53,736 nt of DNA from Rhizobium sp. Q54 (GTDB lineage Bacteria; Pseudomonadota; Alphaproteobacteria; Rhizobiales; Aestuariivirgaceae): contig CAMDBX010000019.1 of the NCBI GenBank assembly GCA_945889445.1, positions 1-53,736 on the forward strand. The letters are read 5' to 3'. The translations under genes and the position numbers were made by a program. The notes beneath the pieces are model-generated. The model did not search any database, was not told where the DNA came from, and saw only the letters and a list, made by a program, of their open reading frames with translations. Below, one piece after another: positions 11,808-52,618 of the stretch; positions within the stretch are counted from its first letter, which is position 1; every line of letters starts with the position of its first letter.

Positions 11808-11830
11808 CGCTTCGCATTCCAAGACTTCAG

Positions 11831-13569: not shown

Positions 13570-13649
13570 TTCACCCTGCCCGGGCTTGATCCGCGCTACC
13601 TTTGCAGCTGCATGAAAACGGACCCCCGGGTCAAGCCCGGGCAGGTGAA
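13570..13649. repeat. dispersed intergenic palindromic repeat, copy 2
   Basis: An 80-base element with near-perfect inverted ends: TTCACCCTGCCCGGGCTTGA on the left and TCAAGCCCGGGCAGGTGAA on the right, with a non-paired centre. It lies in the 283-base gap between the convergent lipase and fabZ genes, where it could act as a bidirectional terminator. Confidence 0.75.
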
Positions 13650-13755
13650 TTCAACGAGGTCTCCCATATCGCAGGAGCCTCATTCCCAACCTTGTAGAGG
13701 AAGGCAGCCTGAGGAGTGGGAAGCGGGAGCAACGGCGCCTAACGGAGGTTGAGGC

Positions 13756-14232: not shown

Positions 14233-14308
14233 TCTGCGGTCTCTCCCAAAAAGTTGCGGACGGCCATTGGCCGCCCGCTTGTGTCTTAAGCCGCTGCGGT
14301 GCGCCCGT

Positions 14309-38892: not shown

Positions 38893-39942
38893 TCAGATCC
38901 TCGCGCCGCTGGCCGCATCGAACAGGTAGCAGCGTGAGGTGTCGAAGGTCAGGCCGATCGGGGTTTCCAGTTCCTGCCGGAAGCTTCTTGCCCCCTTCGC
39001 CACCACCATCTGGTCGCCCGCCAGCGCCGACACCAGCGTCTGGTCACCCGTCGGCTCCAGCGAATAGAGGCTGGAATTGAGGTTGCCATGCCCCGGCTGT
39101 GACACGGAGATGTCCTCCGGCCGGATGCCAAGGATCACGCCCGCGCGGCTGCCTTTGCCGACGCCCTCGACGCGGGTCGAGGGGCCGAAGAAGGTGCCGT
39201 TCTCCAGATCACCCTTCAGCAGGTTCATTGGCGGTGAGCCGATGAAGCCCGCCACGAAGACATTGGCCGGGTTGTTGTAGACTTCGTCGGGCGTTCCCAG
39301 CTGCTGGATCTTGCCCTTGCTCATGATGGCGATCCGGTCGGCCAGCGTCATGGCCTCGATCTGGTCATGCGTCACGTAGATCGTCGTCGTCTCCAGCCGG
39401 CGCTGGATATGCTTCAGCTGCGCGCGCATGGTGAGGCGCAGCTTGGCATCCAGGTTAGAGAGCGGCTCGTCCATCAGGAACACGCGCGGGTGGCGCACAA
39501 CGGCGCGGGCCAGTGCCGCACGCTGGCGCTGGCCGCCGGACAGGGCGCGCGGCTTGCGATCGAGCAGGTCGCCCAGCTCAACGATGGCCGCAGCCTCGCG
39601 CACCAGCTGGTCGTGCCTGTCCTTCGGCACGCCACGCATGCGCAGCGGAAAGCGGATGTTCTCGTAGATCGTCATGTTGGGGTAGAGCGCGTAGGACTGG
39701 AACACCATGGCCACGTCCCGGTCGCGTGCGTCGACGTCATTGACCGTATCGCCGTCGATCAGGATCTCGCCGCCGGTCGGGTCTTCCAGCCCGGCAATCA
39801 TCCGCATGGTGGTGGTCTTGCCGCAGCCCGAGGGGCCGAGGAACACCATGAACTCCTTGTCCCGTATCTCGAGGTCGATCGCATCCACCCCGACCACCGG
39901 GCCCCAGGCCTTGCTGATCTTGTTCAGGCTGATCGATGCCAT
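38893..39942 (-). CDS. sugar ABC transporter ATP-binding protein (MalK/UgpC type)
   Basis: 349 residues from the ATG at 39942. Walker A GPSGCGKTT is at 36-44, the Q-loop is in VFQSYALYPNMTIYENI, the signature is LSGGQRQRAALARA, Walker B is VFLMDEPLSNLDAKLR, and the switch His is in YVTHDQIEAMTLA. The C-terminal TOBE regulatory domain (PPMNLLKGDLENG, GIRPEDISVSQ) identifies the CUT1 subfamily. It energises import of a sugar or polyol. The matching permeases and binding protein lie at 46.2-49.6 kb. This gene is instead divergent from the DRL-E1-E2-kinase operon and shares its regulatory region. Confidence 0.93.
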   Translation of the reverse strand: MASISLNKISKAWGPVVGVDAIDLEIRDKEFMVFLGPSGCGKTTTMRMIAGLEDPTGGEILIDGDTVNDVDARDRDVAMVFQSYALYPNMTIYENIRFPLRMRGVPKDRHDQLVREAAAIVELGDLLDRKPRALSGGQRQRAALARAVVRHPRVFLMDEPLSNLDAKLRLTMRAQLKHIQRRLETTTIYVTHDQIEAMTLADRIAIMSKGKIQQLGTPDEVYNNPANVFVAGFIGSPPMNLLKGDLENGTFFGPSTRVEGVGKGSRAGVILGIRPEDISVSQPGHGNLNSSLYSLEPTGDQTLVSALAGDQMVVAKGARSFRQELETPIGLTFDTSRCYLFDAASGARI

Positions 39943-40082
39943 GCGCTGCGACGCTCCCGATTTTTGCCAAGTGTTACACATCCGACACTAAATGCAAGAT
40001 CACGGAGTGATTGTTTCGTAATTAGCCGTAAAGCACAGCGTCCGGAAGTGCCGCCAAAGTTGGGATTTCCAACTTCTCGCAG

Positions 40083-40109
40083 GCGCAAACTGCTTTCGCA
40101 TCTGCGAAA
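40083..40109. promoter_or_regulatory. candidate operator: composite GCGCAAA-N4-TTTCGCA with a perfect inverted repeat
   Basis: GCGCAAA at 40083-40089 and TTTCGCA at 40094-40100. The latter is the left arm of a perfect 7-2-7 inverted repeat whose right arm TGCGAAA is at 40103-40109. The same two words recur in the same order at 49861-49876, in front of the SorC regulator gene. This is a candidate binding site for that regulator. Confidence 0.5.
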
Positions 40110-40114
40110 TGGGT

Positions 40115-40131
40115 TTGTTTCGGCCAAACAA
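40115..40131. promoter_or_regulatory. second inverted repeat in the divergent control region
   Basis: TTGTTT-CGGCC-AAACAA, perfect 6-base arms, lies 7 bases upstream of the -35 element of the plus-strand operon. It could bind the same or another regulator. Confidence 0.4.
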
Positions 40132-40137
40132 TACTTA

Positions 40138-40168
40138 TTGACACATCGCTGCCCAAAAGTATCCTATT
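40138..40168 (+). promoter_or_regulatory. putative promoter of the DRL-E1-E2-kinase operon
   Basis: A consensus TTGACA lies at 40138-40143. The -10 is either TATCCT (40160-40165, 16-base spacer) or TCCTAT (40162-40167, 18-base spacer). The DRL-like start codon follows at 40196, with AGGAG in between. Confidence 0.5.
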
Positions 40169-40195
40169 GTAGATAGCCTACTTCAGGAGCCCCGC

Positions 40196-41551
40196 ATGCC
40201 GGCAGACACGATCTCGCGCACACCGCGCCGCATCGGCCCGGCGACAGGCCTTGCTGCCGACCTCGCACGCCGCCTCGATGACACCGGCCGACCGATCCGC
40301 GTTGGCCTTATCGGGTCCGGCGAAATGGGCACCGACATCGTTACCCAATGCCAGCAGATGACCGGCATCACGGTGGCTGCCATTGCCGAGATCAACCTTG
40401 CGGCGGCGCGCAAGGCGCTGAGCATCTCCGGACGCCCCGATGACGCGGTGATGGAGGCCGCCACGGCCTCGGCCTTCGCCTCAACCCTGGAAGCCGGCAA
40501 GACGGCCATCACGCAGGATGCGCTGCTCGTCTGCACCTCGCCCCACATCGACGTGGTGATCGACGCCACCGGCAAGCCGGCCGTTGGCGCCGAGATCGGC
40601 CTCACCGCCATGGAACATGGCAAGCACCTCGTCATGATGAACGTCGAGGCCGACGTCACCATCGGTGCCTATCTGGCCCGCGAGGCGAAGCGGCTGGGCG
40701 TCGTCTACACGCTGGGTGCGGGCGATGAGCCCTCCTCCACCATGGAGCTCATCAATTTCGTCACTGGCCTCGGCTACCCCATCGTCGCGGCCGGCAAGGG
40801 CAAGAACAATCCGCTGAACATCGACGCCACGCCCGACGCCTACATGGACGAGGCCAAGCGCCGCAACATGAACCCGCGCATGCTGGTGGAGTTCGTCGAC
40901 GGTTCCAAGACCATGGTGGAAATGGCGGCCATCGCCAATGCCACTGGCCTTGTCCCCGACTGTCCCGGCATGCACGGCCCGGCCGCCACCCTCGACCAGC
41001 TGGAAAAGGTGCTGTGCCCCAAGGCAGACGGCGGCGTGCTGTCGCGCAAGGGCGTCGTCGACTACTCAATCGGTAAGGGCGTGGCACCGGGCGTGTTCGT
41101 CATCGCCGAGATGGCGCACCCCCGCGTGCGTGAGCGCATGCACGACCTGAAGCTTGGCCCCGGCCCCTACTACACCTTCTACCGGCCCTATCACCTGACC
41201 AGCCTCGAAGTGCCGCTCTCCTGCGCCCGCGCGGTGCTTTACCACGCGGCCGACATGGTGCCGCTCGACGTGCCCTCGGCCGAAGTCTGCGCGGTGGCCA
41301 AGAAGGACCTCGTCCCTGGCGAGCGGCTGGATGCCATCGGCGAGTACACCTATCGCGCCTGGATCATGACGGTGGCGGATGCCATCCGCGACCGAGCCGT
41401 TCCCTGCGGGTTGCTCGAGAACGGCAAGACCACGAAGCCCATCCGCAAGGGCGAACTCCTCACCTACGACAACTGTGCGGTGGATGGTTCCGCCCGCATC
41501 GTGGCGCTGCGCCAGCGCCAGGACGACATGCTGAAAGGCTCGATGACATGA
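40196..41551 (+). CDS. DRL-like NAD(P)-dependent oxidoreductase with SAF domain
   Basis: 451 residues, with AGGAG 8 bases before the ATG. The Rossmann motif IRVGLIGSGEMGTDIV lies at residues 35-49. The middle includes DVVIDATGKPAVGAEIGL and GAGDEPSSTMELINFV. A C-terminal SAF-type region (near 360-440) includes AKKDLVPGERLDAIGEYTYR and GLLENGKTTKPIRKGELLTY. From memory this is the family of homoserine-dehydrogenase-like proteins to which DRL of Brucella abortus belongs. DRL is an alternative to DXR that converts 1-deoxyxylulose 5-phosphate to methylerythritol 4-phosphate. Family members may have other sugar-phosphate substrates. Its stop overlaps the E1-alpha ATG by 4 bases (ATGA). The operon context argues for a catabolic role. 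Confidence 0.8.
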   Translation: MPADTISRTPRRIGPATGLAADLARRLDDTGRPIRVGLIGSGEMGTDIVTQCQQMTGITVAAIAEINLAAARKALSISGRPDDAVMEAATASAFASTLEAGKTAITQDALLVCTSPHIDVVIDATGKPAVGAEIGLTAMEHGKHLVMMNVEADVTIGAYLAREAKRLGVVYTLGAGDEPSSTMELINFVTGLGYPIVAAGKGKNNPLNIDATPDAYMDEAKRRNMNPRMLVEFVDGSKTMVEMAAIANATGLVPDCPGMHGPAATLDQLEKVLCPKADGGVLSRKGVVDYSIGKGVAPGVFVIAEMAHPRVRERMHDLKLGPGPYYTFYRPYHLTSLEVPLSCARAVLYHAADMVPLDVPSAEVCAVAKKDLVPGERLDAIGEYTYRAWIMTVADAIRDRAVPCGLLENGKTTKPIRKGELLTYDNCAVDGSARIVALRQRQDDMLKGSMT

Positions 41552-42564
41552 ACGCCGTGGGCAAGATCAAGCCGAATGCCCGGCCCTTCTACCAAAAATA
41601 CACGGCCTCCCAGCTGAAGGATGCCCTTCGCAAGATGTACCTGATCCGCCGCTTCGAGGAAGGCGCGGAAGAGGCCTACATGCGCGGGCTGATCCACGGC
41701 ACCATGCACCTTTCGATCGGCCAGGAAGGCTCTGCCGTCGGCGCCACCATGGCCTTGCGCAACACCGATTACATCACCTCCACCCATCGCGGCCACGGCC
41801 ACTGCATCGGCAAGGGGGCGGACCCCAAGCTGATGTTCGCGGAATTCTTCGGCAAGGAAGAAGGCTACTGCCGGGGCCGTGGCGGCTCCATGCACATCGC
41901 CGACGTCTCGACCGGAAACCTCGGCGCCAATGGCATCGTCGGCGGCGGGCTGCCAATTGCGGTGGGTGCCGCACTCGCCATCAAGAAGCAGAAGCGCGAC
42001 GACGTTGCCATGTGCTTCTTCGGTGACGGTGCTTCGAACGAGGGCGCCTTCCACGAGGCACTCAACATGGCTTCGGTCTGGAAACTGCCCGTGGTCTTCG
42101 TTTGCGAGAACAACAAGTACGGGATGTCGGTTTCAACAGAGCGTTCCATGGCGGTGGCCAACGTGGCGGACCGTGCCGCGGCCTATGCCATGCCCGGCGT
42201 CATCGTCGACGGCAATGCCATCGCCGATGTCGAGGAGGCGATCGCCGAGGCCATCGCGCGGGCCAGGCGTGGCGAAGGGCCGACGCTCGTCGAATGCAAG
42301 ACCTACCGCACCCGCGGCCATTCCCGCTCCGACCGCAACCGCTACCGCACCAAGGAAGAGATCGAGGAGTGGAAGGCACGTGACCCCATTCCGCATTTCG
42401 AAGCGGAACTGATGGCCCACGGCCTCGCGACCGCGGCGGAGGTCACCGCCATCCGCGAATCCGCCGAGGCCGAGATCGCGGCCGGCATCGAATTCGCCCG
42501 CCTCGGCACCGATCCCAACCCCAGTGAAGTGACGCGCGACGTCTACTCCAACGAGGCGGCGTGA
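41548..42564 (+). CDS. 2-oxoacid/acetoin dehydrogenase E1 component, alpha subunit
   Basis: 338 residues. The thiamine-diphosphate motif runs from GDG at 159-161 ([17 protein letters not shown]) to the NN at 188-189 ([12 protein letters not shown]). [12 protein letters not shown] and [20 protein letters not shown] are shared by pyruvate and acetoin dehydrogenases. The regulatory phosphorylation-loop sequence reads [10 protein letters not shown]. It decarboxylates or cleaves a keto substrate to an acyl group on TPP. The carbohydrate-catabolic neighbours favour an acetoin-type or specialised substrate over housekeeping pyruvate. It is translationally coupled on both sides (ATGA with DRL, TGATG with E1-beta). 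Confidence 0.9.
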
Positions 42565-43556
42565 TGAGCGTGCGCGAACTGACCTACGCGCAGGCGATCC
42601 AGGAAGCGCTCGCCCAGGCGATGGATGCCGATCCCTCGGTCTTCCTGATGGGCGAGGACATCGGCGTCTATGGTGGCGCCTTCCAGGTGACGGGCGATCT
42701 CGTGCACCGCTATGGCGAAGACCGGGTGATGGACGCGCCGATTTCCGAACTCGGCCAGGCCGGTGTGGCGGTCGGTGCGGCACTCGCCGGCTGCAGGCCG
42801 GTGCTGGAATTCCAGTTCTCGGACTTCGCCACGCTGGCCATGGAGCAGATCGTCAACCAGGCGGCCAAGCTGCGCTTCATGCTCGGCGGCAAGGTGAACG
42901 TGCCCCTCGTCATGCGCTTCCCTGCCGGGTCCGGCACTGGGGCCGCAGCACAGCATTCGCAGTCGCTCGATGCGTGGCTGGCGCACGTCCCCGGCCTCAA
43001 GGTCATACAGCCATCAACGCCCGCTGACGTGAAGGGCATGCTGCTTGCGGCCATCGACGATCCGGATCCCGTCATGGTCTTCGAGCACAAGCTGCTTTAC
43101 AAGATGAAGGGCGAGGTTCCGGAGGAGCCCTACCGCATCCCCATCGGCAAGGCACATGTGGCACGCGAGGGCCGTGACGTGACCGTGGTCGCCACCTCCA
43201 TCATGGTGCACAAGTCGCTCGAAGCCGCCGCAACACTCGCTTCCGAAGGCATCGACGTTGAAGTGATCGACCTGCGCACGCTCCGCCCCATCGACACCGC
43301 GACCATCATCGACAGCGTGAAGAAGACCTCCCGCCTCGCCTGCGTCTATGAGGGCGTGAAGACGCTCGGCATCGGCGCCGAGATCAGCGCCCGCATCGCC
43401 GAGAGCGAGGCCTTCGACTATCTCGACGCGCCAATCCTGCGTCTGGGCGGGGCCGAGTCTCCCATCCCCTACAATCCGGAACTCGAGAAGGCCGCAGTGC
43501 CGCAGGTGCCGGGCATCATCGAGGGGCTTCGCAACCTCGTCCGCGGGCGCATGTAG
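42564..43556 (+). CDS. 2-oxoacid/acetoin dehydrogenase E1 component, beta subunit
   Basis: 330 residues from the ATG at 42564, sharing one base with the E1-alpha stop. Motifs: [40 protein letters not shown], and the C-terminal transketolase-like [19 protein letters not shown]. It forms the alpha2-beta2 E1 with the preceding gene. Unlike many housekeeping pyruvate dehydrogenase beta subunits of alphaproteobacteria, it has no fused N-terminal lipoyl domain. Confidence 0.91.
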
Positions 43557-43557
43557 C

Positions 43558-44805
43558 ATGGCCGTCGAAGTCATCCTTCCGCGCGTCGACATGGACATGG
43601 CGACGGGCAAGATCTCCAAGTGGCACCACAAGGACGGCGACAAGGTCGCCAAGGGTGCGGCCCTGTTCGAGATCGAGACCGACAAGGCGGCCATGGAGAT
43701 CGATGCCCCGGCCGACGGCATCCTGCGCAACATCATCGTCACCGAAGGCAGCAGCGCGCCGGTCGGCTCTGCGGTTGCGTGGATCTATGCCGAGGGCGAG
43801 GCGGTCACGGTACCCGCGCCCGCGGCCAAACCGGTGGCCGCATCGACTGCTCGTGCTGAAGTGCCTTCAGTTGCCCCGCCATCTGCGTCATCACCGGTTG
43901 CCAATGGCGAGGCGCCGCGTGCCACGCCGCTCGCCCGCCGCCTTGCACGCCAGGCAGGCCTGTCGATTGCGTCCATCGCCGGATCAGGCCCGCGCGGTCG
44001 CATCACCGCCGCTGACGTGCGCAGCGCCGGCGAGGCGAAGCCCTTGCCGCCGCCCGCCCCCGCGATCAGCAGTGACGGAGTCCAGAAGCTCTACGCTCCC
44101 GGCAGCTTCGACGTCATCCCCGTCGACGGCATGCGCCGCACCATCGCGGCGCGGCTGACGGAGTCGAAGCAGACCGTTCCGCATTTCTATCTCTCCGTCA
44201 CCTGCACCCTCACCACGCTCATGGCCACGCGCGAGCGGCTGAACGCATCCGCACCCAAGGGTGAAGACGGCAAGCCGCTGTGGAAGCTGTCGATCAACGA
44301 CTTCATCATCAAGGCCATGGGTGCTGCGCTCCAGAAGGTGCCCGCCGCCAATGTCACCTGGGCCGGGGACGCGATCCTGCAGCACCGGTCGAGCGACGTG
44401 GGCGTCGCGGTGGCCGTCGAGGGCGGACTCTTCACCCCGGTGATCCGCCACGTGGAAGGCAAGACGCTGACCGCCATCTCCGCCGAGATGAAGGAGCTGG
44501 CTTCCAAGGCCCGCGCCCGCAAGCTGGTGCCCTCCGAGTATCAGGGCGGCACAACCGCCATCTCGAACCTCGGCATGTACGGGATCGAGCAGTTCACCGC
44601 CATCATCAACCCGCCACAGGCGACGATCCTCGCCGTGGGTGCCGCCTTGGAGCGCTTCGTGCCGGTCAACGGCCAGCCGGTATTGGCCAGCCAGATGGTC
44701 TGCACCCTGTCCTGCGATCACCGCGCGATCGATGGCGCGGTGGGCGCGGAGTTGCTGCACGCCTTCCGGCAGCTTATTGAAGAACCACTGCTGATGCTGG
44801 CCTGA
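43558..44805 (+). CDS. dihydrolipoamide acyltransferase (E2)
   Basis: 415 residues in the standard order. One lipoyl domain (1-80) has lipoylated Lys43 in EIETDKAAME. A Pro/Ala linker follows. The E3/E1-binding domain near 120-160 reads ATPLARRLARQAGLSIASIA, then GPRGRITAADV. The trimer-forming catalytic domain ends with His388 and Asp392 in CDHRAIDGAVG. It moves the acyl group from E1 to CoA. It starts 2 bases after the E1-beta stop. No E3 (lipoamide dehydrogenase) gene is nearby, so the complex must borrow a general one. Confidence 0.92.
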   Translation: MAVEVILPRVDMDMATGKISKWHHKDGDKVAKGAALFEIETDKAAMEIDAPADGILRNIIVTEGSSAPVGSAVAWIYAEGEAVTVPAPAAKPVAASTARAEVPSVAPPSASSPVANGEAPRATPLARRLARQAGLSIASIAGSGPRGRITAADVRSAGEAKPLPPPAPAISSDGVQKLYAPGSFDVIPVDGMRRTIAARLTESKQTVPHFYLSVTCTLTTLMATRERLNASAPKGEDGKPLWKLSINDFIIKAMGAALQKVPAANVTWAGDAILQHRSSDVGVAVAVEGGLFTPVIRHVEGKTLTAISAEMKELASKARARKLVPSEYQGGTTAISNLGMYGIEQFTAIINPPQATILAVGAALERFVPVNGQPVLASQMVCTLSCDHRAIDGAVGAELLHAFRQLIEEPLLMLA

Positions 44806-44836
44806 AGACCGGCACGGCCGATCAAGGGAGGTTTCC

Positions 44837-45784
44837 GTGCCGCGCTACGATTATGTCTCCATGGGCTTCTACACCTATGACTGCCTCGGCTGGCCTTTCA
44901 CCGAAGTGCCACCCGGCGGCGGCACGGTGTTCATCGATGAACTCACCCTCGCGGTCTCAGGTGCCGGCGGCACCGCGGCCATCGCCGCCGCCAAGATGGG
45001 GCTCAACACGCTGGCGCTGGCCGGGGTTGGCGAAGACCTGATGGGCGACTGGGTGCTGCAGCGGCTCCAGCATTTCGGTGTCGACACATGGGGTGTTCAG
45101 CACCAGCCCGGCTGGAAAACCTCCTCCTCCATCGTCACCACCCGCGCTGATGGCTCGCGCCCCGCCCTCCACATGAAGGGCGCCACCTCGAACTTCTTCG
45201 TCACCGACGAGATGATCCCGCGCGCGGTGGACACCAAAGTTTTCCACGCCGGCGGCGTGGGCCTCATGGATGCGATGGACAAGGGCCAGACCGCTGTCGT
45301 CATGAAGGCCGCCAAGGCCAATGGCGCCACCACCACGGTGGACGTCTTCGCCGGTTCTCCGAAGGACCTCCCGGCCATTGCGCGGGTGCTGCCCTACACC
45401 GACTATTTCATGCCCTCGATCGAGGAGGCACAGGCGCTTTGCGGCCTCTCGGACCATGGCGACACCGCAAGATTCTTCCTCGACATGGGTGTGACGGCCT
45501 GCGTGCTGACGCTCGGCGGCGACGGCGCCTATTATCATGACAGCCACGGCGTGGAATTCCGTGTGCCAGCCTTTGACATCATCGTGAAATGCACCTGCGG
45601 CTGCGGCGATGCCTTCAATGCAGGCTTCGCCGTGGCACTGGTGCACGGCTTCGACATGGAAAAGGCGGTGCGTTTCGCACAGGCGACGTCGGCGCTCAAC
45701 GCCACGGGCCTTGGCTCCCAGGCGGGCGTGAAGGATTTCCAACACACGCTGGCCTTCATGAACGAAACCCTGACCAAGGGGTGA
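44837..45784 (+). CDS. PfkB-family carbohydrate kinase
   Basis: 315 residues from the GTG at 44837, which follows a strong GGGAGG. The ribokinase fold is shown by SGAGGTAAIAAAKMGLNTLALAGVGED at the substrate-binding side and by the C-terminal signature CTCGCGDAFNAGFAVAL. Asp258 there is the catalytic base. The anion-hole GAGD is GCGD here, and two more Cys lie within three residues, which is unusual. It would phosphorylate a sugar or polyol. It is 31 bases downstream of E2, the last gene of the operon. Confidence 0.9.
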   Translation: MPRYDYVSMGFYTYDCLGWPFTEVPPGGGTVFIDELTLAVSGAGGTAAIAAAKMGLNTLALAGVGEDLMGDWVLQRLQHFGVDTWGVQHQPGWKTSSSIVTTRADGSRPALHMKGATSNFFVTDEMIPRAVDTKVFHAGGVGLMDAMDKGQTAVVMKAAKANGATTTVDVFAGSPKDLPAIARVLPYTDYFMPSIEEAQALCGLSDHGDTARFFLDMGVTACVLTLGGDGAYYHDSHGVEFRVPAFDIIVKCTCGCGDAFNAGFAVALVHGFDMEKAVRFAQATSALNATGLGSQAGVKDFQHTLAFMNETLTKG

Positions 45785-45938
45785 GCCCTGTTTGCAGGTT
45801 CAGGTCGTCTCCCGCTCTTTCAGCAGAAGGAGATCAGTGCTTCCTCTTCGCTCCCGACATGTCCATGCTTGCAATGGAGCGAAGGCTTCTCTACTCCGGG
45901 ACGATGTCCAACCAACCTACTTTGTGCAATGGGGCAAC

Positions 45939-46181
45939 ATGACCGATTCTTCACCCCCCGACAGGCTGAGCGCTGATCCCTCGAGCAAGTTCCACAATCC
46001 AACAGAGCTTGAACGCGGGATCCACGTGTTTCTCGATGGGAAGGAATACTTCGACGTCGAAGAATACTGCACGTCCGAGGGCTGGGTCCGTCTCCCGGCT
46101 GGAAAAGCGAGAACGCGCACCGGTCGTCCCGTCACGATCACCAAGCGCGGTGAAGTGACGGTTCGCTACGAAGACCTTTGA
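45939..46181 (+). CDS. DUF3297 family protein
   Basis: 80 residues from the ATG at 45939. It follows the short DUF3297 pattern: PDRLSADPSSKFHNP, LERGIHVFLDGKE, VEEYCTSEGWVRLPAGKARTR, and PVTITKRGEVTVRYED. The family is widespread in proteobacteria and of unknown function. The longer frame from 45792 lacks a ribosome-binding site. It does not look connected with the catabolic genes on either side. Confidence 0.85.
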   Translation: MTDSSPPDRLSADPSSKFHNPTELERGIHVFLDGKEYFDVEEYCTSEGWVRLPAGKARTRTGRPVTITKRGEVTVRYEDL

Positions 46182-46227
46182 ACGAGGCCCGGACAAAAGG
46201 CTAGCACCCGCGGAGCGAGGCCCTCGC

Positions 46228-47055
46228 CTACCCCTTCACCGCGCCCATGGTGAGCCCGCGTGACAGGTGGTTCTGGATCAGGATCACCAGCAGGAGTGCG
46301 GGGAAGAAGGCAAGGAAAGCCACCAGCGCAATGGCGTTGTAGATGATGCCATCGGAACCACCCGAGAAATTGGCCAGTGCCACCGACAGCGGATAGGCGT
46401 TCTTGCTGGCGATGATCAGCGTGAACAGATACTCGTTCATGGCGAAGATCGCCGCGATCACCGCCGCCGTGATGATGCCGGGCAGGCCCATGGGGATGAT
46501 GATCGACCACAGGATGCGGAGGTCCGAGGCGCCGTCGGTGCGCGCCGCATCCTCGATCTCGTGCGGAATGTCGATCATGTAGGAGCGGATGATCCACACG
46601 ACGATGGAGAGGTTCATCGCGGCATAGACCAGCATCAGCGCCCACACCGTGTCGAGCAGGCCCATCGCCCGGAACAGGAAGAAAATGGGAATAGCCACCG
46701 CCGCCGGCGCCATCATCTTGGTGGAGAGGATGTAGAAGCCGATGTCGTCGCGGCCGCGATACTGGTAGCGCGCCAGCGAGTAGGCGGCGGGAATGCCGAG
46801 CACCAGGCAGATGATCACGCTCCCGGTCACCGAGATCACGGAGTTCATGAAATAGTGCATGATCGGCCACTCGGCCCAGATCTTGGCCCAGGTCTCTATC
46901 GAAATCGTGGGGAAGTAGATCGGCTGCGGCGCGATGATCTCGTTGCGGGGCCTGAGCGCGATGGTGGCGAAGAAGATGATCGGCAGCACGCAGAACAAAC
47001 CCCACACCGAGAGCAGGATGGTGCGGCCGGCCGAGAAGCGGGAGCCATCCGACAT
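46228..47055 (-). CDS. carbohydrate ABC transporter permease (MalG type)
   Basis: 275 residues from the ATG at 47055. Six transmembrane helices and the EAA loop (EIEDAARTDGASDLRILWSI, then PMGLPGIITA) that docks on the ATPase are present. Its start shares one base with the stop of the upstream permease (TGATG). The open frame extends upstream to 47439 inside that gene and is discarded. It is the last gene of the binding protein-permease-permease unit. Confidence 0.93.
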   Translation of the reverse strand: MSDGSRFSAGRTILLSVWGLFCVLPIIFFATIALRPRNEIIAPQPIYFPTISIETWAKIWAEWPIMHYFMNSVISVTGSVIICLVLGIPAAYSLARYQYRGRDDIGFYILSTKMMAPAAVAIPIFFLFRAMGLLDTVWALMLVYAAMNLSIVVWIIRSYMIDIPHEIEDAARTDGASDLRILWSIIIPMGLPGIITAAVIAAIFAMNEYLFTLIIASKNAYPLSVALANFSGGSDGIIYNAIALVAFLAFFPALLLVILIQNHLSRGLTMGAVKG

Positions 47056-47966
47056 CAGTCCCTCCCCGACCTGAAAAAGCGCCGCACGAAGGACTGGGCC
47101 AGGATGATCGTCAGCACCAGCACCACCACCGAGGCCGCCGACGCGTAGCCGAACTCGAAGCTCTTGAAGCCGGTGCGGTAGATGAAATAGCTCACCGTCT
47201 CGGTGTTTCCGCCGGGCGAGCCTTGCGTGATGATGTGGGGCGAGGCGAACATGGTGAGGATGTCGATGCCGCGCAGCACCAGCGCGATGGCGATCACCGG
47301 GCGCATCAGCGGCAGCGAGATCGAGAAGAAGATTTGCCGCCAGCGCGCGCCATCCAGCCGGGCCGCCTCCTCGATCTCCTTGTCCTGGCCCTGCAGTGCT
47401 GCCACGAAGATGATGAACAGGAAAGGCACCCACTGCCACACGTCTGTCACCACCAGAACGCCGCGGGCAAGCCAGGTGGAACCCATGAAGTCGATGTTGG
47501 AGTCAACGAGCCCGATCCGCATGAGAAGGTCGCTGATCACCCGTCCATCGTTGAACAGAAGCTTCCAGAGATAGGCGACGGCCGACGGCATGAACAGCAT
47601 CGGCAGCAGGAACAGGATGCGCCAGCCGCGCACCAGCGGGTCGCGGTAGACCAGGGCAGCCAGCGTCATGGCGATCACGAATTCGACGGCGAGTGTGATG
47701 CCGCCGATGATCAGCGTGTTGGTCAGGCTGTGCCAGAAGGTCTCGTCGCGGAACAGGTCGACATAGTTCTGGAAGCCGATGAATTCGAGCTTGAAGCGCC
47801 CCTGGTAGAAACTCCGCCAAAGCGCGAAAATGCCGGGATAGAGCGTGATGGCCAACAGGTAGACGACCGCTGGCGCCACCAGCAGGTAAGGAAAGGCCTT
47901 GCGCCGGAACGGGCTGCGGCGCCGTGCCATGCGCAAGGTGGAGGTGGGGAGGACGGCGTCAGTCAT
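47055..47966 (-). CDS. carbohydrate ABC transporter permease (MalF type)
   Basis: 303 residues. The first helix follows a basic N-terminus (RMARRRSPFRRKAFPYLLVA, then LLAITLYPGIFALWRSFYQG). The EAA loop reads EIEEAARLDGARWRQIFFSI, then SLPLMRPVIAIAL. It forms the membrane heterodimer with the MalG-type partner. It begins 72 bases after the binding-protein stop, with a hairpin between. Confidence 0.93.
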   Translation of the reverse strand: MTDAVLPTSTLRMARRRSPFRRKAFPYLLVAPAVVYLLAITLYPGIFALWRSFYQGRFKLEFIGFQNYVDLFRDETFWHSLTNTLIIGGITLAVEFVIAMTLAALVYRDPLVRGWRILFLLPMLFMPSAVAYLWKLLFNDGRVISDLLMRIGLVDSNIDFMGSTWLARGVLVVTDVWQWVPFLFIIFVAALQGQDKEIEEAARLDGARWRQIFFSISLPLMRPVIAIALVLRGIDILTMFASPHIITQGSPGGNTETVSYFIYRTGFKSFEFGYASAASVVVLVLTIILAQSFVRRFFRSGRD

Positions 47967-47981
47967 GGAACCTGCTGTGAC

Positions 47982-48025
47982 AAAAAACCCCTCCCCCGCT
48001 CACAGGGAGCGAAACGGGAGAGGGG
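47982..48025 (-). terminator. terminator-like hairpin between binding protein and permeases
   Basis: On the minus strand CCCCTCTCCCG (48015-48025) pairs with CGGGGGAGGGG (47988-47998) with one mismatch, followed by six T (47982-47987). It probably lets most transcripts stop after the binding protein, giving more of it than of the permeases. It is related to the palindromes near 22.3-22.4 kb. Confidence 0.65.
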
Positions 48026-48038
48026 CCGGAGAGGCGTG

Positions 48039-49613
48039 TCAGAACGGTAGCGGCTTACCCCTGCCCACCCACATGCCGGGGGCGGTTGCCGCAAAGTTCA
48101 TCGGATCCTTGCCCTGGTAGAAGCCGTTCTTGGTCATGATGTCCTTGACCTTGACGGCGGCCTCGTCCAGCGCGGCTTTGGGCTGCATCTCGCCCACCAC
48201 CACCTTGTTGATCAGGAAGCCGATCTCCTGGTCGATCTGGAAGCCGTTGGGCAGGCGCGGTGCACACCATGCGTAGTTCAGTTCCTCGCCCCACACCTTG
48301 GCAGGCTGTGAGACTTCCTGCAGCTTGGCGTTGCTGAGAACCGACTTGTAGCCCGGCGCCACGCCATTGGCGTTGGCCTCGTTCATCGCCATGATCGAGG
48401 CGGTGGTGAGGTAGGCCAGCATCAGGAAGGCGGCTTCCGGTTCCGGCGACGAGGCCGTGACGCAGGACGTCGAACCGGCGATGTTCGGCGGCGCGAAGTT
48501 GCCGCCCTTGACGCGCGGTTCGAAGATGGTGAGCACGTCGTCGCCGATCTTCGACTGGTCGGGGCGCGTGGCCTGCGTGCCCGAATCCTGCCAGGAGATG
48601 TTGCAGGCGATCTGGCCGCCGAGCCATGCGGCGCGGTTGGTTGGCCAGTCGGCTGCGGCCACGCCTTCAATGGCGTGCTTCGACAGTGCCACGATGGTCT
48701 CGAGGCCCTTCACGCCGGCGTCGCCGTTGAAGATAGGCTCCCAGTTCTCGTTGAAGAGTTCGAGGCCATACTGTGCTGCAATGTGCTGCCAGGTATAGGT
48801 GGCCCAGAAGCCGCGGCCGCACATCATGCCGATGCCGTTCACACCCTTCTCGGCCTTGTTCAGTTCCGGCGCGATGCGGATCATGTCGTCGTAGGTCTCG
48901 ATCGACTTCACGCGGTCAGCGTCGATGCCGATCTTCTTGAAGATCGACGGCCGGATGTGGACCATCTGGATGTCGCAGTCGAAGGGAATGCCGAGAATGC
49001 CCTTGTCCGCCCAGTGGCCGTAGTTCAGCTGATAGGTCTCGTAGAAGTCGTCGAAGGGAACGCCCCACTTGGCGACATATTCATCCAATGGCTTCAGGAA
49101 GCCTTGTGCCGCGAAGTCGCCGAGCCAGGGCGAGAAGAACTGGATGGCGTCGAAACCGGCGTTGCCGGAGAGGAACTCGGCCACCACCTTGTCGTACATG
49201 GAGTCATCGGGGATGGCGACGAGCTCGATCTTGATGCCCGAAAGCTGCGCGAATGGTTCGATCTGATCCTGCGCGGATTCACGGTCGGCCGCGCCGATGG
49301 CGAAACGCACCGTCTTGCCGGCATGTTCCTTGCGCACCGCCTCCCAGTCGACGTTGCGGATCCAATCCTTCTTGGGATCCCACAGCTCGTCATTGTCGCC
49401 GAGCTTGTACTGCTCGCGATATTCCTTCTTCACCATGTTGCCGACGTTGATCTTGGCCAGCACGTCAGCCGGGTTCGGCAGGTTCTGCGCGGAGGCGCGG
49501 CGGATGTTGACCAGCGGCACGGCACCCGTGCCGACGGCAAGGGCAGCACCGACTGCGGCGGTGGACTTCAAGAGCGAGCGGCGGGTGATCAGACCCGACT
49601 TGGTGATCGGCAT
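48039..49613 (-). CDS. Tat-exported ABC transporter substrate-binding protein (sugar type)
   Basis: About 524 codons from the ATG at 49613 (GGAGGAC upstream). The leader ITRRSLLKSTAAVGAALAVG has the twin-arginine motif, so export is probably folded via Tat. The mature protein has the family-1 binding-protein pattern: YDKVVAEFLSGNAGFDAIQF, then GILGIPFDCDIQMVHIRPSI, then NGIGMMCGRGFWATYTW. It is larger than a usual maltose-binding protein (about 400 residues) and has an extra N-terminal stretch after the signal (KINVGNMVKKEYREQYKLGD). It is divergent from the SorC regulator. Confidence 0.9.
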   Translation of the reverse strand: MPITKSGLITRRSLLKSTAAVGAALAVGTGAVPLVNIRRASAQNLPNPADVLAKINVGNMVKKEYREQYKLGDNDELWDPKKDWIRNVDWEAVRKEHAGKTVRFAIGAADRESAQDQIEPFAQLSGIKIELVAIPDDSMYDKVVAEFLSGNAGFDAIQFFSPWLGDFAAQGFLKPLDEYVAKWGVPFDDFYETYQLNYGHWADKGILGIPFDCDIQMVHIRPSIFKKIGIDADRVKSIETYDDMIRIAPELNKAEKGVNGIGMMCGRGFWATYTWQHIAAQYGLELFNENWEPIFNGDAGVKGLETIVALSKHAIEGVAAADWPTNRAAWLGGQIACNISWQDSGTQATRPDQSKIGDDVLTIFEPRVKGGNFAPPNIAGSTSCVTASSPEPEAAFLMLAYLTTASIMAMNEANANGVAPGYKSVLSNAKLQEVSQPAKVWGEELNYAWCAPRLPNGFQIDQEIGFLINKVVVGEMQPKAALDEAAVKVKDIMTKNGFYQGKDPMNFAATAPGMWVGRGKPLPF

Positions 49614-50062
49614 GCGGTTGTCCTCCATGGGGTTCGGCCTGTGTCGTTGCATCCAAGCCTCGCCGCAGGCCGGCGGTGGGCGGGATCAGTCAGCGATGAC
49701 GGGACGTATGAGAGGGGCAATGGCCTGCCGCGATCCGCGGCGGCAGCGAACGAAACGACGACTGTCAGCAAGGGCAGCATGTTCGTTCCTCCCTGGGCAC
49801 CTTCCCGTTCTGATGCGGGATCGGCGCACATGTAATTCATGTACTAAACAACATTGCGATGCGCAAATGTTTCGCAATGACGCGCTGCAACAAGGTCTCG
49901 CATCGCAAAATCTACGGATAAATTACGCCAAAACGGCGGCTTGGATGACCTTCGATCATGGCTTCCGTTGCCCTCCCAACATCTGCAACAAAAGTGCAGG
50001 CTTGCCCGATTTAGTATCCTCGGCCACAATGGGAAGACGCAATCGCCAGTGGGTTCAGCAAG
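49614..50062. other. divergent control region between transporter and SorC regulator, 449 bases
   Basis: It holds the promoters of the binding-protein operon (minus) and the regulator (plus). An AT-rich patch near 49830-49930 contains at least four TTGCGA/TCGCAAA-type words, listed separately. No coding sequence is seen. Confidence 0.55.
49854..49876. promoter_or_regulatory. candidate SorC operator: inverted repeat plus GCGCAAA-N2-TTTCGCA
   Basis: TTGCG-ATG-CGCAA (49854-49866) is a perfect short inverted repeat. It overlaps GCGCAAA (49861-49867), which is followed after 2 bases by TTTCGCA (49870-49876). A further CATCGCAAAA is at 49901-49910. The GCGCAAA/TTTCGCA pair matches the element at 40083-40100. 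Confidence 0.5.
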
Positions 50063-51052
50063 TTGGAGAAGGCACAGTCCCGCAAGAGCCGGACCCTCCC
50101 CCCTGAGCGGGGTGCGGGCCGCATCGCCCGCAACCGCATGCGCATCGCCTGGATGTATTACGTCGAGGGCCTCACCCAGAACGAGATTGCCGACCGGCTC
50201 GGCATCGGTCGCGTCACGGTGGTGCGCAACATCAACGAGGCGATCAAGCAGCGCGAGGTGAAGATCTGGATCGAGGGCGAGGTCACCGATTGCTTCGAAT
50301 TGGAGGGCGAACTCAAGAAGGCCTTCGGTTTCAAGGATGCCGTGGTCGTGCCGGAACCGGTGAACCCCGAGAACATTCGCAAATCGATTGGTGTCGCTGC
50401 GGGCATGTATGTCTCCGACACGCTGGAAGACGACATGACGGTGGGCGTGGGCTGGGGCGCCACACTCTACGAGTCGCTCGCAACACTGGCGCCGCGCGAC
50501 CTCGAGAACCTGCAGGTCATCTCGCTCTTGGGCGGCATCGTGCAGGCCCGCAAGTTCAATCCGGCGGAATTCGCCTGGCAATTCGCCCGCATCATGGGGG
50601 CGGACTGCTACCTGTTCCAGGCGCCCGCCGTGGTCGATTCACCTGAAACCCGCGAGGCGCTGATCGAGCGCTGCGGGCTGAAGGACATCTTCCGCCGCGC
50701 CGAGCGGCTGGACTTGGCCATCCTCAGCGTCGGCACCATGGCGCCCTCCTCCACCGCCTTCCGCTTCAACCTGATCAGCGACGAGGAGCGCGCCGAACTC
50801 TTGAAGCTCGGTGCGGTGGGCGACATGCTGTTCAACTTCTATGACCGCGAGGGGCGGCTGGTGGACCACCCGGTCAACCGCCGCATCATGTCGCTGCCGA
50901 TCGCGCAGCTGCGCAGCGTGCCCACCCGCGTCATCGCGTCTGGCGGCAACGACAAGGTGGACTGCCTCCTGGGCGCCATCCGGCTCGCGGACTGCAACGT
51001 CCTCATCACCAATGAGGCGACGGCCCGCGAGCTTCTGCTGCGGAAGCCTTAG
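50063..51052 (+). CDS. SorC-family transcriptional regulator
   Basis: About 329 residues. The helix-turn-helix is near residues 26-65 (RIAWMYYVEGLTQNEIADRL, then GIGRVTVVRNINEAIKQREV). The C-terminal sugar-binding domain, related to sugar-phosphate isomerases, has MTVGVGWGATLYESLATL, then VISLLGGIVQ, and VGTMAPSSTAF. SorC regulators respond to phosphorylated sugars or polyols (examples: DeoR of Bacillus, LsrR, EryD). The longest frame begins at a TTG without a clear ribosome-binding site. The next in-frame ATG (50138) would cut close to the DNA-binding helices, so the TTG is kept with reservation. Divergent from the transporter, it probably controls it. Confidence 0.88.
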   Translation: MEKAQSRKSRTLPPERGAGRIARNRMRIAWMYYVEGLTQNEIADRLGIGRVTVVRNINEAIKQREVKIWIEGEVTDCFELEGELKKAFGFKDAVVVPEPVNPENIRKSIGVAAGMYVSDTLEDDMTVGVGWGATLYESLATLAPRDLENLQVISLLGGIVQARKFNPAEFAWQFARIMGADCYLFQAPAVVDSPETREALIERCGLKDIFRRAERLDLAILSVGTMAPSSTAFRFNLISDEERAELLKLGAVGDMLFNFYDREGRLVDHPVNRRIMSLPIAQLRSVPTRVIASGGNDKVDCLLGAIRLADCNVLITNEATARELLLRKP

Positions 51053-51612
51053 GCGCCGCGCACCTTCATGAAGTTCTCGGCGGCGCCCTTGAGCTTCCAG
51101 CCGAAGACCAGCAGCACAAGGCCCACCAGCACCGCCGTGGCGGCGATCACCCAGATGATGCTGATGGCGGCCGTGGCAGGGTAGAACACGATCAGCAGGC
51201 CGAGGCCCGCGCCGATGAGACCCGACAGCGCCAGCAGCCCCGGCTGCTCGATCTCCTTCCACATCACCAGCGCGCCGATGAGCTGCAGGAGGCCCGCCGC
51301 GATGTTCCAGAAGCCGATGAGGAGAACCACATATTTGGTGGCGAAGTCAGGGGCCAGCAGGCAGACGAGGCCCGCCACGATGCCCACGAGGGCCGTGAGC
51401 AGGCTGGTCACCGAGGTGCCCTGTTCACGCCCCCGCATCACGCCCCACAGGCCGAGAAGACCATCCACCAGCGCATAGATGCCGAACAGTGTCACCACCA
51501 CGGCCAGCGTTACCCCGGGATAGACGAAGGCCAGGATGCCGAAGATCAGGCTCGCCAGCCCGCGCAGCAGGATGGTCCGCCACATCGCGGTAAAGAATTC
51601 GCGCATCGCCAT
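51049..51612 (-). CDS. HdeD/DUF308 family membrane protein
   Basis: 187 residues with six transmembrane helices in three tandem helix pairs. The first reads LLRGLASLIFGILAFVYPGV, then TLAVVVTLFGIYALVDGLLG. A repeat of the pattern starts at SLLTALVGIVAGLVCLLAPD. This is the HdeD-type DUF308 layout, linked to acid resistance in E. coli but of unknown role here. Its stop overlaps the convergent regulator gene by 4 bases. Confidence 0.85.
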   Translation of the reverse strand: MAMREFFTAMWRTILLRGLASLIFGILAFVYPGVTLAVVVTLFGIYALVDGLLGLWGVMRGREQGTSVTSLLTALVGIVAGLVCLLAPDFATKYVVLLIGFWNIAAGLLQLIGALVMWKEIEQPGLLALSGLIGAGLGLLIVFYPATAAISIIWVIAATAVLVGLVLLVFGWKLKGAAENFMKVRGA

Positions 51613-51682
51613 GTCAATCTCCCCCGGTTTCGCTAGACTGCGCCAAGCCTAGCACACCCCGTCCTGAATCTGGGAGAGCGGA

Positions 51683-52618
51683 TTGGACACGCAGACCCAC
51701 GCCAAATACGAACAGCTGATCGAGCGCACCAGGCTCCTCCCGGCGGCGCCGACGGTGGTCGTGCACCCCTGCGATGAGACCTCGCTGCTGGGGGCGGTGG
51801 AAGCCGCCGGGCTGGGCATCATCGTTCCGATCCTGGTCGGCCCCCGCCGCAAGATCGAGGCGGTGGCGCAGAAGGCCGGGGCCGACATCTCGGGCTTCCG
51901 TCTTGTCGATGCCCCCCACAGCCACGCCTCGGCGGCACAGGCGGTGGAGCTGATCCGGGCGGGCGAAGGCGCGCTTCTCATGAAGGGCAGCCTCCACACC
52001 GAGGAACTGATGCACGAGGTCACCTCCTCGGCCACCGGGCTTCGCACCGCGCGGCGCATCAGCCATGTCTTCGTGATGGATGTGCCGACCTACGCCGAGC
52101 CGCTGTTCATCACCGATGCCGCCATCAACATCTTCCCGGACCTCGATACCAAGGTCGACATCGTGCAGAACGCCATCGACCTGCATGTGCAGATCGGCCT
52201 CGGCATGCCGCGCGTCGCCATCCTCTCGGCGGTGGAGACGGTGACCACCAAGATCCCCTCGACGATCGAGGCCGCCGCCCTGTGCAAGATGGCCGAACGC
52301 GGCCAGATCACCGGCGGGCTGGTGGATGGCCCGCTGGCCTTCGACAACGCCATCGACCGGCAAGCGGCGCGCATCAAGAACATCCGTGGCGAGGTGGCCG
52401 GCCGGGCCCAGATCCTGGTGGTCCCGGACCTCGAGGCCGGCAACATGCTGGCCAAGAACCTTACCTTCCTCGCCGGGGCGGATGCGGCGGGCATCGTGGT
52501 GGGCGCCCGGGTACCGATCGTGCTGACCTCGCGGGCCGATTCCGTGCGGGCCCGCATGGCTTCCTGCGCCATCGCAGCCCTTTACGCACAGTCACGCCCG
52601 GCGATCCCCGGCGAATAG
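51683..52618 (+). CDS. phosphate acetyl/butyryltransferase
   Basis: 311 residues, TTG start with GGGAGAG 7 bases upstream. This is the phosphotransacetylase/phosphotransbutyrylase fold: EGALLMKGSLHTEELMHEVT, then RISHVFVMDVPTYAEPLFIT, GLVDGPLAFDNAID, and VVPDLEAGNMLAKNLTFLAG. It interconverts acyl-CoA and acyl phosphate. Some relatives carry an N-terminal hydratase domain, absent here. No acetate or butyrate kinase gene is adjacent. As an acyl-CoA user it fits downstream of the E1-E2 complex, but co-regulation is unproven. Confidence 0.87.
   Translation: MDTQTHAKYEQLIERTRLLPAAPTVVVHPCDETSLLGAVEAAGLGIIVPILVGPRRKIEAVAQKAGADISGFRLVDAPHSHASAAQAVELIRAGEGALLMKGSLHTEELMHEVTSSATGLRTARRISHVFVMDVPTYAEPLFITDAAINIFPDLDTKVDIVQNAIDLHVQIGLGMPRVAILSAVETVTTKIPSTIEAAALCKMAERGQITGGLVDGPLAFDNAIDRQAARIKNIRGEVAGRAQILVVPDLEAGNMLAKNLTFLAGADAAGIVVGARVPIVLTSRADSVRARMASCAIAALYAQSRPAIPGE

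What the first reader, a model, noticed from the sequence alone, without database searches (positions are those of the whole stretch)
38893..52618. Split catabolic locus: DRL-like oxidoreductase, acetoin-type E1/E2, PfkB kinase, CUT1 importer, SorC regulator, phosphotransacetylase
Seen: one tightly coupled operon (40196-45784) with ATGA/TGATG overlaps, an ABC importer split around it, a SorC regulator and a phosphotransacetylase. Known: SorC regulators sense phosphorylated sugars, PfkB enzymes phosphorylate sugars or polyols, and acetoin-type E1 cleaves CH3-CO-CHOH compounds on TPP. DRL of Brucella acts on 1-deoxyxylulose 5-phosphate/methylerythritol 4-phosphate. Inference: a deoxy- or methyl-branched sugar or polyol is imported and phosphorylated, converted by the DRL-like enzyme to a 1-deoxyketose phosphate, and cleaved by E1/E2 to acetyl-CoA plus a triose phosphate. 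The logic parallels AI-2 breakdown by Lsr. I know of no described pathway with this set.
Basis: partly seen in the sequence, partly recalled or inferred. Interest (0 to 1): 0.8.

Follow-up and report, generated by a model that had tools for sequence, protein, structure and literature searches.

The report
Predicted operon for eating methylerythritol
These genes look like a bacterial pathway, not described in the papers we could search, that imports 2-C-methyl-D-erythritol (a small branched sugar alcohol made by plants and microbes) and breaks it down by running the first committed step of isoprenoid synthesis backwards, then cutting the product into acetyl-CoA and a three-carbon sugar.

Summary
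The core (DRL, E1 alpha, E1 beta, E2) is a conserved unit in alpha- and beta-proteobacteria: E1 follows DRL in 59 of 78 loci, and 32 of 33 plasmid E1 alpha genes of this type sit beside DRL. DRL matches Brucella DXR-II at 26 of 29 family positions compared. E1 is a clade apart from PDH and acetoin dehydrogenase, with Phe61 changed to Thr in 74 of 74. In relatives a glucitol PTS replaces the ABC importer plus kinase; [quoted passage not shown] Of 40 genomes, unlinked DRL occurs in 25 of 27 without DXR-I and 0 of 13 with it; E1-linked DRL occurs in both groups. Best reading: methylerythritol is phosphorylated to MEP, oxidised by DRL in reverse to DXP, and cleaved by E1/E2/E3 to acetyl-CoA plus glyceraldehyde 3-phosphate. 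It would explain why some bacteria carry DXR-II besides DXR-I and suggests that Brucella's isoprenoid enzyme has catabolic ancestry.

The parts
38893..39981 (-). ABC importer ATPase (CUT1, UgpC/MalK-like)
   Evidence: Kept next to DRL in window-type loci.
40196..41551 (+). DRL / DXR-II-family oxidoreductase; proposed MEP to DXP (reverse of the isoprenoid step)
   Evidence: PF21135 2e-69; 3upl 1.2e-179; 26 of 29 compared positions as in Brucella DRL, among them K191, K193, T229, H250, R320, G121; V351, D205 and I310 differ.
41548..42564 (+). E1 alpha, TPP-dependent; proposed DXP-cleaving
   Evidence: PF00676 1.6e-89; linked E1 alpha clade, support 87/98; human PDH Phe61 position is Thr in 74 of 74 linked.
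42561..43556 (+). E1 beta (GTG start at 42561, or ATG at 42564)
   Evidence: PF02779/PF02780; linked E1 beta clade, support 100/99; Priestia then C. difficile are its nearest outgroups, support 87/89 and 85/55.
43558..44805 (+). E2 dihydrolipoamide acyltransferase (PDH-type catalytic domain)
   Evidence: PF00198, lipoyl and E3-binding domains; an alpha/beta-hydrolase (AcoC-like) E2 stands in its place in other lineages.
44837..45784 (+). PfkB-family kinase; proposed methylerythritol 4-kinase
   Evidence: PF00294 6.1e-37; none of 22 NCBIfam models matched reaches its cut-off; PTS instead in many relatives.
46228..47055 (-). ABC importer permease 2
   Evidence: window-type relatives keep it at 72-96% identity.
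47055..47966 (-). ABC importer permease 1
   Evidence: PF00528.
48039..49652 (-). Extracellular solute-binding protein with TAT-type signal
   Evidence: PF01547 9.8e-32, PF10518; only distant solved relatives, best 1.2e-17.
50063..51052 (+). SorC-family (sugar-binding) transcriptional regulator
   Evidence: PF04198 1.3e-61; SorC in 25 of 35 E1-linked loci with full flanks.
51683..52618 (+). Phosphate acetyl/butyryltransferase-family enzyme; doubtful part of the system
   Evidence: PF01515 1.9e-41, NF008852 over cut-off; matched beside the set only in L009 of 80 loci, most of which end too soon to show it.

Best explanation
A catabolic pathway for 2-C-methyl-D-erythritol (ME). The ABC importer takes ME up; [quoted passage not shown] the TPP-dependent E1 binds DXP, which has a CH3-CO-CHOH head, and cleaves C2-C3, releasing D-glyceraldehyde 3-phosphate and leaving a two-carbon unit that E2 passes to CoA as acetyl-CoA, with E3 reoxidising the lipoyl group (E3 is in the operon in some relatives; it is not in this one and I did not search for it in the genome). 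SorC probably senses MEP or DXP. Shown here: gene content, conserved linkage, residue conservation, E1 phylogeny, exchange of ABC + kinase for polyol PTS, genome distribution against DXR-I. Inferred: substrate, direction of DRL, E1 cleavage of DXP, SorC ligand.
For: (1) Linkage: E1 alpha adjacent to DRL in 59 of 78 loci, from Rhizobiales to Paraburkholderia, Burkholderia and Variovorax; in reverse, 32 of 33 plasmid E1 alpha places have DRL next to them by coordinates. (2) Import plus phosphorylation swapped as a unit: of 35 E1-linked loci with full flanks, 20 have a glucitol PTS (4 of these also a galactitol PTS), 8 have CUT1 + PfkB, none has both, 7 have neither pair; of 15 loci without adjacent E1, 1 has either (L026, with E1 a few kb away); Fisher p 1.5e-6, relatedness not corrected. 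(3) The sorbitol PTS of Salmonella is reported to transport ME (title of Testa et al. 2004 in reference lists). (4) DRL with a SorC-type regulator and a glucitol PTS in 5 of 5 Firmicutes DRL records that I opened (with 117, 66 with 87, 79 with 93, 85 with 93); Priestia has PTS, E1/E2/E3, SorC and DRL in one cluster. (5) K191, K193, T229 and R320 kept in all 65 linked DRLs tabulated (L044 was left out), numbering from PMC3847144. (6) E1 alpha Phe61 (in 2 PDH and 3 acetoin-type rows) is Thr in 74 of 74 linked plus Priestia and C. difficile; own clade. (7) 13 of 13 genomes with DXR-I carry a linked DRL and 0 an unlinked DXR-II-type one; 25 of 27 without DXR-I carry an unlinked one; p 9e-9, relatedness not corrected. 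(8) PMC3847144 states that M. loti and O. anthropi encode additional functional DXR-II paralogs; related genomes here have one linked and one unlinked copy.
Against: No activity, growth or ligand data. The DXR equilibrium favours MEP (recalled), so the pathway relies on pull by E1. The PfkB is not matched to any curated function, and E1 beta passes a PDH model. In 7 of 35 linked loci neither full import pair was within about 10 kb (one, L016, has PfkB alone), nor in 2 of 8 linked plasmid loci. In window-type loci L018, L021, L022, L024 and L025 DRL stands with PfkB and no E1 beside it. Listeria, Enterococcus and Ligilactobacillus records have DRL + PTS without E1, so another fate of the DRL product must exist there. 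Of 17 plasmid DRL records opened, 4 (H7, H37, H43, H50) show neither E1 nor polyol PTS. Rhizobium SSA_523 has this E1/E2 with a galactitol PTS and no DRL nearby. In 2 of 27 DXR-I-less genomes, and in the window's own genome where a C51 copy in another sugar cluster is the only other DXR-II-type candidate, a catabolically placed DRL may also serve isoprenoid synthesis. A suspected counterpart of the DXS residue R478 in E1 beta could not be settled.
Confidence: 0.62

Rival explanations
1. Same chemistry on a different branched or 1-deoxy polyol (a 2-methyltetrol isomer, a 1-deoxypentitol) that yields another 1-deoxyketose phosphate for E1/E2.
For: Gene logic is the same; PTS types vary (glucitol, galactitol); the C51-type DRL in the same genome lies in another sugar cluster.
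Against: The 65 linked DRLs tabulated keep K191, K193, T229 and R320, and the paper's DXR-II clade contains tested MEP-forming enzymes; the sorbitol PTS is reported to carry ME (title only).
Confidence: 0.17
2. 1-Deoxy-D-xylulose salvage: the kinase or PTS makes DXP, E1/E2 burns it and DRL shunts part of it to MEP for isoprenoids.
For: DXP is the E1 substrate in either case; the genome lacks DXR-I but has DXS and IspG.
Against: Linked DRL is present in 13 of 13 genomes that have DXR-I, where a shunt is not needed; glucitol/galactitol PTS families carry polyols rather than ketoses (family knowledge).
Confidence: 0.1
3. Anabolic module: E1 acts like DXP synthase (pyruvate + glyceraldehyde 3-phosphate to DXP) and DRL makes MEP, a private entry to isoprenoids.
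For: E. coli aceE mutants rescue loss of DXS (PMC3424233, abstract); E1 + DRL mirror DXS + DXR.
Against: E2, and E3 in Rhizobium, Sinorhizobium and Shinella, make an oxidative acyl-CoA complex; sugar importers and SorC go with it; the own genome already has DXS.
Confidence: 0.05
4. E1/E2 is simply a spare pyruvate dehydrogenase; DRL and importer serve an unrelated sugar.
For: E1 alpha and E2 score close to PDH models and E1 beta passes one.
Against: E1 is outside the PDH clade and has Thr at the PDH Phe61 position in 74 of 74; the own genome has a separate PDH-clade E1 (C16) and acetoin-clade E1 (C95); linkage to DRL in 32 of 33 plasmid records.
Confidence: 0.05

Closest known systems
DXR-II / DRL of Brucella (isoprenoid synthesis)
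   Same: Same family; 277 of 428 residues identical; 26 of 29 compared positions kept, among them the substrate contacts K191, K193, T229.
   Different: Here in an operon with E1/E2, a kinase, an importer and SorC; proposed to run in reverse; linked copies occur in genomes that already have DXR-I.
Acetoin dehydrogenase complex (AcoABC)
   Same: TPP E1 that would cleave CH3-CO-CHOH-R; THRGHGH motif in 74 of 74 linked E1 alpha; AcoC-like E2 in some relatives.
   Different: E1 outside the acetoin rows in the trees; Phe61 position Thr; the genuine acetoin operons compared carry butanediol dehydrogenase, the scanned window proteins do not.
Lsr autoinducer-2 breakdown
   Same: Import, phosphorylation, SorC-type regulator, acetyl-CoA plus triose phosphate logic (recalled).
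   Different: No LsrF/LsrG-like match among the ten window proteins scanned; different cleavage enzyme.
Sorbitol/glucitol PTS operon
   Same: GutM, SrlA/E/B and HPr-EI genes beside the DRL operon in relatives.
   Different: The window uses CUT1 + PfkB instead; DRL stands where a sorbitol-6-phosphate dehydrogenase would be expected (recalled; its absence was not searched for).

Membership tests
DXR-II | Falls with tested DXR-II enzymes, not with DLO1/DLO2 | tested here: met
   Groups with Brucella DRL, the only tested enzyme in the tree, apart from rows L131, L148, L149, which are DLO-like by identity and residues.
DXR-II | K191, K193, T229, R320, H250, G121 (Brucella numbering) | tested here: met
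   All six identical in P0002 (residues from PMC3847144).
DXR-II | V351 (conserved in most DXR-II) | tested here: not met
   Ser in P0002; Ser/Thr/Ala in 12 of 12 window-type, Val in 38 of 43 of the Rhizobiales linked group. The paper calls it conserved in most, so it is not strictly defining. D205 and I310, two further listed sites, also differ.
DXR-II | Makes MEP from DXP | not testable with these tools
   Needs enzyme assay or complementation in a laboratory E. coli strain.
Pyruvate dehydrogenase E1 | Clusters with PDH E1; Phe61 in alpha, Gln88 in beta | tested here: not met
   Outside the pair human PDH + own C16; Thr in 74 of 74 and Leu in 73 of 73.
Pyruvate dehydrogenase E1 | Passes curated PDH models | tested here: inconclusive
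   E1 alpha below TIGR03182 cut-off, E1 beta above the NF006667 subfamily cut-off.
Acetoin dehydrogenase | Clusters with acetoin E1 | tested here: not met
   L173, L174 and own C95 group apart in the E1 alpha tree; in the E1 beta tree also outside the linked clade, but deep forks are weak.
Acetoin dehydrogenase | THRGHGH motif in E1 alpha (motif read off the alignment here) | tested here: met
   74 of 74 linked, also L173, L174, C95; absent in the two PDH rows.
Lsr AI-2 pathway | LsrF/LsrG processing enzymes (recalled) | tested here: not met
   No such match among the ten window proteins scanned.
SorC regulator | Sugar-bind domain PF04198 | tested here: met
   1.3e-61.

The most novel reading that the evidence does not exclude
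The alternative isoprenoid enzyme DXR-II arose as a catabolic enzyme for 2-C-methylerythritol: an ME-eating operon (polyol PTS or ABC + kinase, DRL, DXP-cleaving E1/E2/E3, SorC) is the ancestral setting, and lineages such as Brucella and Mesorhizobium that lost DXR-I recruited a copy for biosynthesis; the Brucella-type locus still keeps a HAD phosphatase 54-59% identical to that of 13 of 14 E1-linked loci that carry one. This would also be a bacterial route for using plant methylerythritol and perhaps isoprene-derived 2-methyltetrols.
Probability: 0.4. Interest if true: 0.88.

Novelty: new variant of a known kind. Interest (0 to 1): 0.78.

Why it matters
It offers an answer to a puzzle visible in PMC3847144: why DXR-II occurs in bacteria that already have DXR-I or lack the rest of the MEP pathway. 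It predicts a catabolic use of an isoprenoid enzyme in reverse, a new substrate class for E1/E2 complexes, and a sink for methylerythritol, which accumulates in plants together with its glucosides (PMC11192765, passages). The 2-methyltetrols of isoprene aerosol (titles in a search listing only) are a further possible substrate. It also warns that a DXR-II match inside a catabolic operon does not imply isoprenoid synthesis.

Tried and rejected
Class-wide sampling (385 genomes) was little use for linkage: only 4 of 385 genomes (5 places, 2 of them in the own genome) had hits at 50% identity or more, the rest 34-41% (probably DLO). I suspected that E1 beta K181 equals DXS R478 (a residue for glyceraldehyde-3-phosphate binding, PMC11908136 passages). 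By eye on the sequences, without gaps, R478 falls on K177 instead, which two of three acetoin rows seem to share, so I make no claim. A conserved unknown 200-aa family (c11) beside many clusters looked like a hidden part, but its copy in the own genome lies in an unrelated locus, so it is not counted. The phosphotransacetylase as a pathway step was set aside: 1 match in 80 loci, none in five window-type loci with room beyond SorC, though most loci end too soon to tell.

Literature: the ten searches gave no description of ME catabolism or of DRL with E1/E2 in the titles and abstract openings listed. Several listings were capped (20 of 30, 20 of 403, 10 of 6,057, 10 of 28, 8 of 219, 8 of 692), and only open-licence PMC papers are held. 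Papers seen: PMC3847144 abstract and sections 5-7; PMC3424233 abstract; PMC3994034, PMC2874528, PMC12323621, PMC11908136 and PMC11192765 passages; Testa et al. 2004 title only, in reference lists; Sangari et al. 2010 not held, known by recall.

Choices that affect counts: the 40 genomes were picked by me from the 80 loci (mostly isolates with long contigs); completeness is not told for them. In one search the DRL_cat hits of 200 bits or less (in G009, G010, G013, G022, G032, G035) were left out as DLO-type; two of these loci, L148 and L149, were checked, the others were not. The unlinked copy of G039 (L147) runs into a contig end and was classed by its place in the tree. For G001, G003 and G004 the unlinked copy is the C51 type, which lies in another sugar cluster. 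E1 trees were thinned to every fourth linked row (39 of 88 and 40 of 88 rows); the PDH and acetoin controls are 2 and 3 rows. Long branches limit the deep order there. The DRL tree is a quick one, rooted at the midpoint. Whether other HAD genes of those genomes are as similar as the neighbour of DRL was not tested.
Full report
What is there. The window (contig C19 of a 4.9 Mb Aestuariivirga-like genome; nearest DRL matches are Aestuariivirga at 91-93%) holds a five-gene operon, DRL-E1 alpha-E1 beta-E2-PfkB (40196-45784), a CUT1 importer split around it, a SorC regulator and a phosphotransacetylase-family gene.

Is it a unit? Among the 80 closest DRL loci, E1 alpha lies directly downstream of DRL in 59 of the 78 that have at least 900 bases there. 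The hosts are alpha-proteobacteria (Aestuariivirga, Taklimakanibacter, Rhizobium, Ensifer, Mesorhizobium, Nitratireductor, Ochrobactrum/Brucella relatives) and beta-proteobacteria (Paraburkholderia, Burkholderia, Variovorax, Xenophilus). The reverse test is as strong: of 33 plasmid records with an E1 alpha like this one, 32 have DRL immediately beside it by coordinates (which lists 50 of 90 DRL records); the exception is Rhizobium SSA_523, where no DRL lies within 9 kb. Of the 90 plasmid records with a DRL-family hit I opened 17: 8 have adjacent E1, Priestia has E1 in the same cluster, 4 further Firmicutes have a glucitol PTS without E1, and 4 (H7, H37, H43, H50) have neither. Not all window-type loci keep E1 at DRL: L018, L021, L022, L024 and L025 have DRL and PfkB without it, and in L026 E1/E2 lie a few kb away.

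What goes with the unit. In 35 E1-linked loci with full flanks, 20 have a glucitol PTS (4 of them also a galactitol PTS), 8 have the CUT1 importer with the PfkB kinase, none has both, and 7 have neither pair within the stretch (L016 has PfkB alone); SorC is present in 25. Of 15 full-flank loci without adjacent E1, one has such a pair (L026). Fisher p = 1.5e-6; related genomes are not independent, so the p-value overstates. Of 8 linked plasmid loci, 4 have the glucitol PTS, 2 CUT1 + PfkB and 2 neither. Pfam and NCBIfam identify GutM, EIIC, EIIB, EIIA, an HPr-EI fusion and galactitol-type EIIA/B/C. E3 (lpdA) follows E2 in Sinorhizobium Rm41, Rhizobium N324 and Shinella. Firmicutes show the same company: Priestia aryabhattai has a glucitol PTS, E1/E2/E3, two SorC genes, DRL and an FGGY kinase in one cluster; Listeria innocua and monocytogenes, Enterococcus raffinosus and Ligilactobacillus have DRL with a glucitol PTS and a SorC-family regulator but no E1 found. 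ABC + kinase and PTS do the same job: they deliver a phosphorylated compound. [quoted passage not shown] The polyol whose phosphate a DXR-type enzyme is known to use is that one.

DRL. PMC3847144 (abstract, sections 5-7 read) defines DXR-II against DLO1/DLO2, names K191, K193 and T229 as fosmidomycin/substrate contacts and R320 as a dimer-interface residue, and discusses G121, H250 and V351 as diagnostic. Of 29 positions compared, the window protein has the Brucella residue at 26; V351 (Ser), D205 (Ala) and I310 (Leu) differ. The 65 linked DRLs tabulated keep K191, K193, T229 and R320. In the tree the Brucella DRL joins a large Rhizobiales clade (49 rows, support 98; 43 of them linked), not the unlinked Mesorhizobium/Nitratireductor copies. 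The same paper says M. loti MAFF303099 and O. [quoted passage not shown] I could not examine those two strains, but related genomes carry one linked and one unlinked copy, so the linked type was probably among those tested. This is inference.

Two roles. In 40 genomes chosen from the 80 loci, I searched DRL_cat and DXR-I. Of 13 with DXR-I, 13 have a linked DRL and 0 an unlinked DXR-II-type copy; of 27 without DXR-I, 20 have a linked and 25 an unlinked one (p 9e-9, relatedness not corrected). Weaker DLO-scoring hits were left out; three of the 25 unlinked copies are of the C51 type described next and one was classed by the tree (see Tried and rejected). Unlinked DRL thus tracks loss of DXR-I (biosynthesis); linked DRL does not (another role). 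In the two exceptions (G036, G037) only the linked type was found. The own genome has DXS and IspG, no DXR-I and three DRL_cat genes: the window copy, a C51 copy in another sugar cluster, and a C148 copy of DLO type (34% to Brucella DRL). So the window or C51 enzyme must also supply MEP, or isoprenoid synthesis uses something not found; this is open.

E1/E2. The linked E1 forms its own clade (support 87/98 for alpha, 100/99 for beta), apart from PDH (human, own C16) and from acetoin dehydrogenase (two plasmid operons with butanediol dehydrogenase, own C95); deep order is uncertain because of long branches. The PDH/acetoin active-site Phe61 of E1 alpha is Thr in all 74 linked sequences and in Priestia and C. 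difficile; a His two residues before is shared too; PDH Gln88 of E1 beta is Leu in 73 of 73 linked. This fits a substrate larger than pyruvate or acetoin. The THRGHGH motif is acetoin-like (74 of 74). Against this, E1 beta passes a PDH subfamily model. E2 is PDH-type here and AcoC-like (alpha/beta hydrolase) in others.

Mechanism and evolution. ME in, phosphorylation to MEP, DRL in reverse to DXP, E1 cleavage of CH3-CO-CHOH-R to enzyme-bound acetyl plus glyceraldehyde 3-phosphate, E2 to acetyl-CoA, E3 to NADH. The DXR reaction is reversible but favours MEP (recalled), so oxidative cleavage would pull it. The Brucella-type DRL locus keeps a HAD phosphatase that is 54-59% identical to that in 13 of the 14 E1-linked loci with this family and 51% to the other (L087); for comparison the L135 copy is 63-66% identical to those of the other genera except L087 (51%) and the Brucella type (59%). 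Two further genomes show the same HAD beside a Brucella-type DRL. This is a possible relic of a catabolic origin.

Judgement. Open: substrate, direction, and why Listeria-type loci lack E1. The ten literature searches showed no such pathway in the rows they listed.

Noticed in passing
L130 (own genome contig C51:1-12000): A second DXR-II-like DRL (57% to the window's) sits in a different sugar cluster: two FGGY kinases, a class II aldolase (its L133 relative is fuculose-phosphate-aldolase-like), CUT1 importer, and an iron-ADH-family gene.
   Followed up: partly
L160 (Pararhizobium A13 plasmid, 8536-15190): A DRL 57% identical to the window's, with an FGGY kinase, SorC and what looks like a ribose-type ABC importer.
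   Followed up: no
L172 (Roseateles XES5 plasmid): SorC, ribose-type ABC, E1 alpha/beta, AcoC-like E2, FGGY kinase and two SDR genes, no DRL annotated: perhaps a sister pathway that also uses an E1/E2 complex on a sugar.
   Followed up: no
L169/L171 (C. difficile record): An E1/E2/E3 operon whose E1 beta is 58% identical to the window's lies with SorC, a galactitol-type PTS, a class II aldolase and lipoate ligase, next to ispD-ispF; no DRL annotated in the stretch.
   Followed up: partly
c11 family, e.g. L087:2384-2995; own genome C4:77572-78153: A ~200-aa family without Pfam match (motif near FGxEPNW; 32 in the set compared) lies beside many DRL-E1 clusters, but the own copy is in an unrelated locus.
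   Followed up: partly
L142/L143 upstream of DRL: HAD phosphatase beside the Brucella-type DRL is 54-59% identical to the HAD gene of 13 of 14 E1-linked loci that carry one.
   Followed up: yes
window 51049-51612(-): DUF308 membrane protein between SorC and the phosphotransacetylase; seen there also in L009.
   Followed up: no
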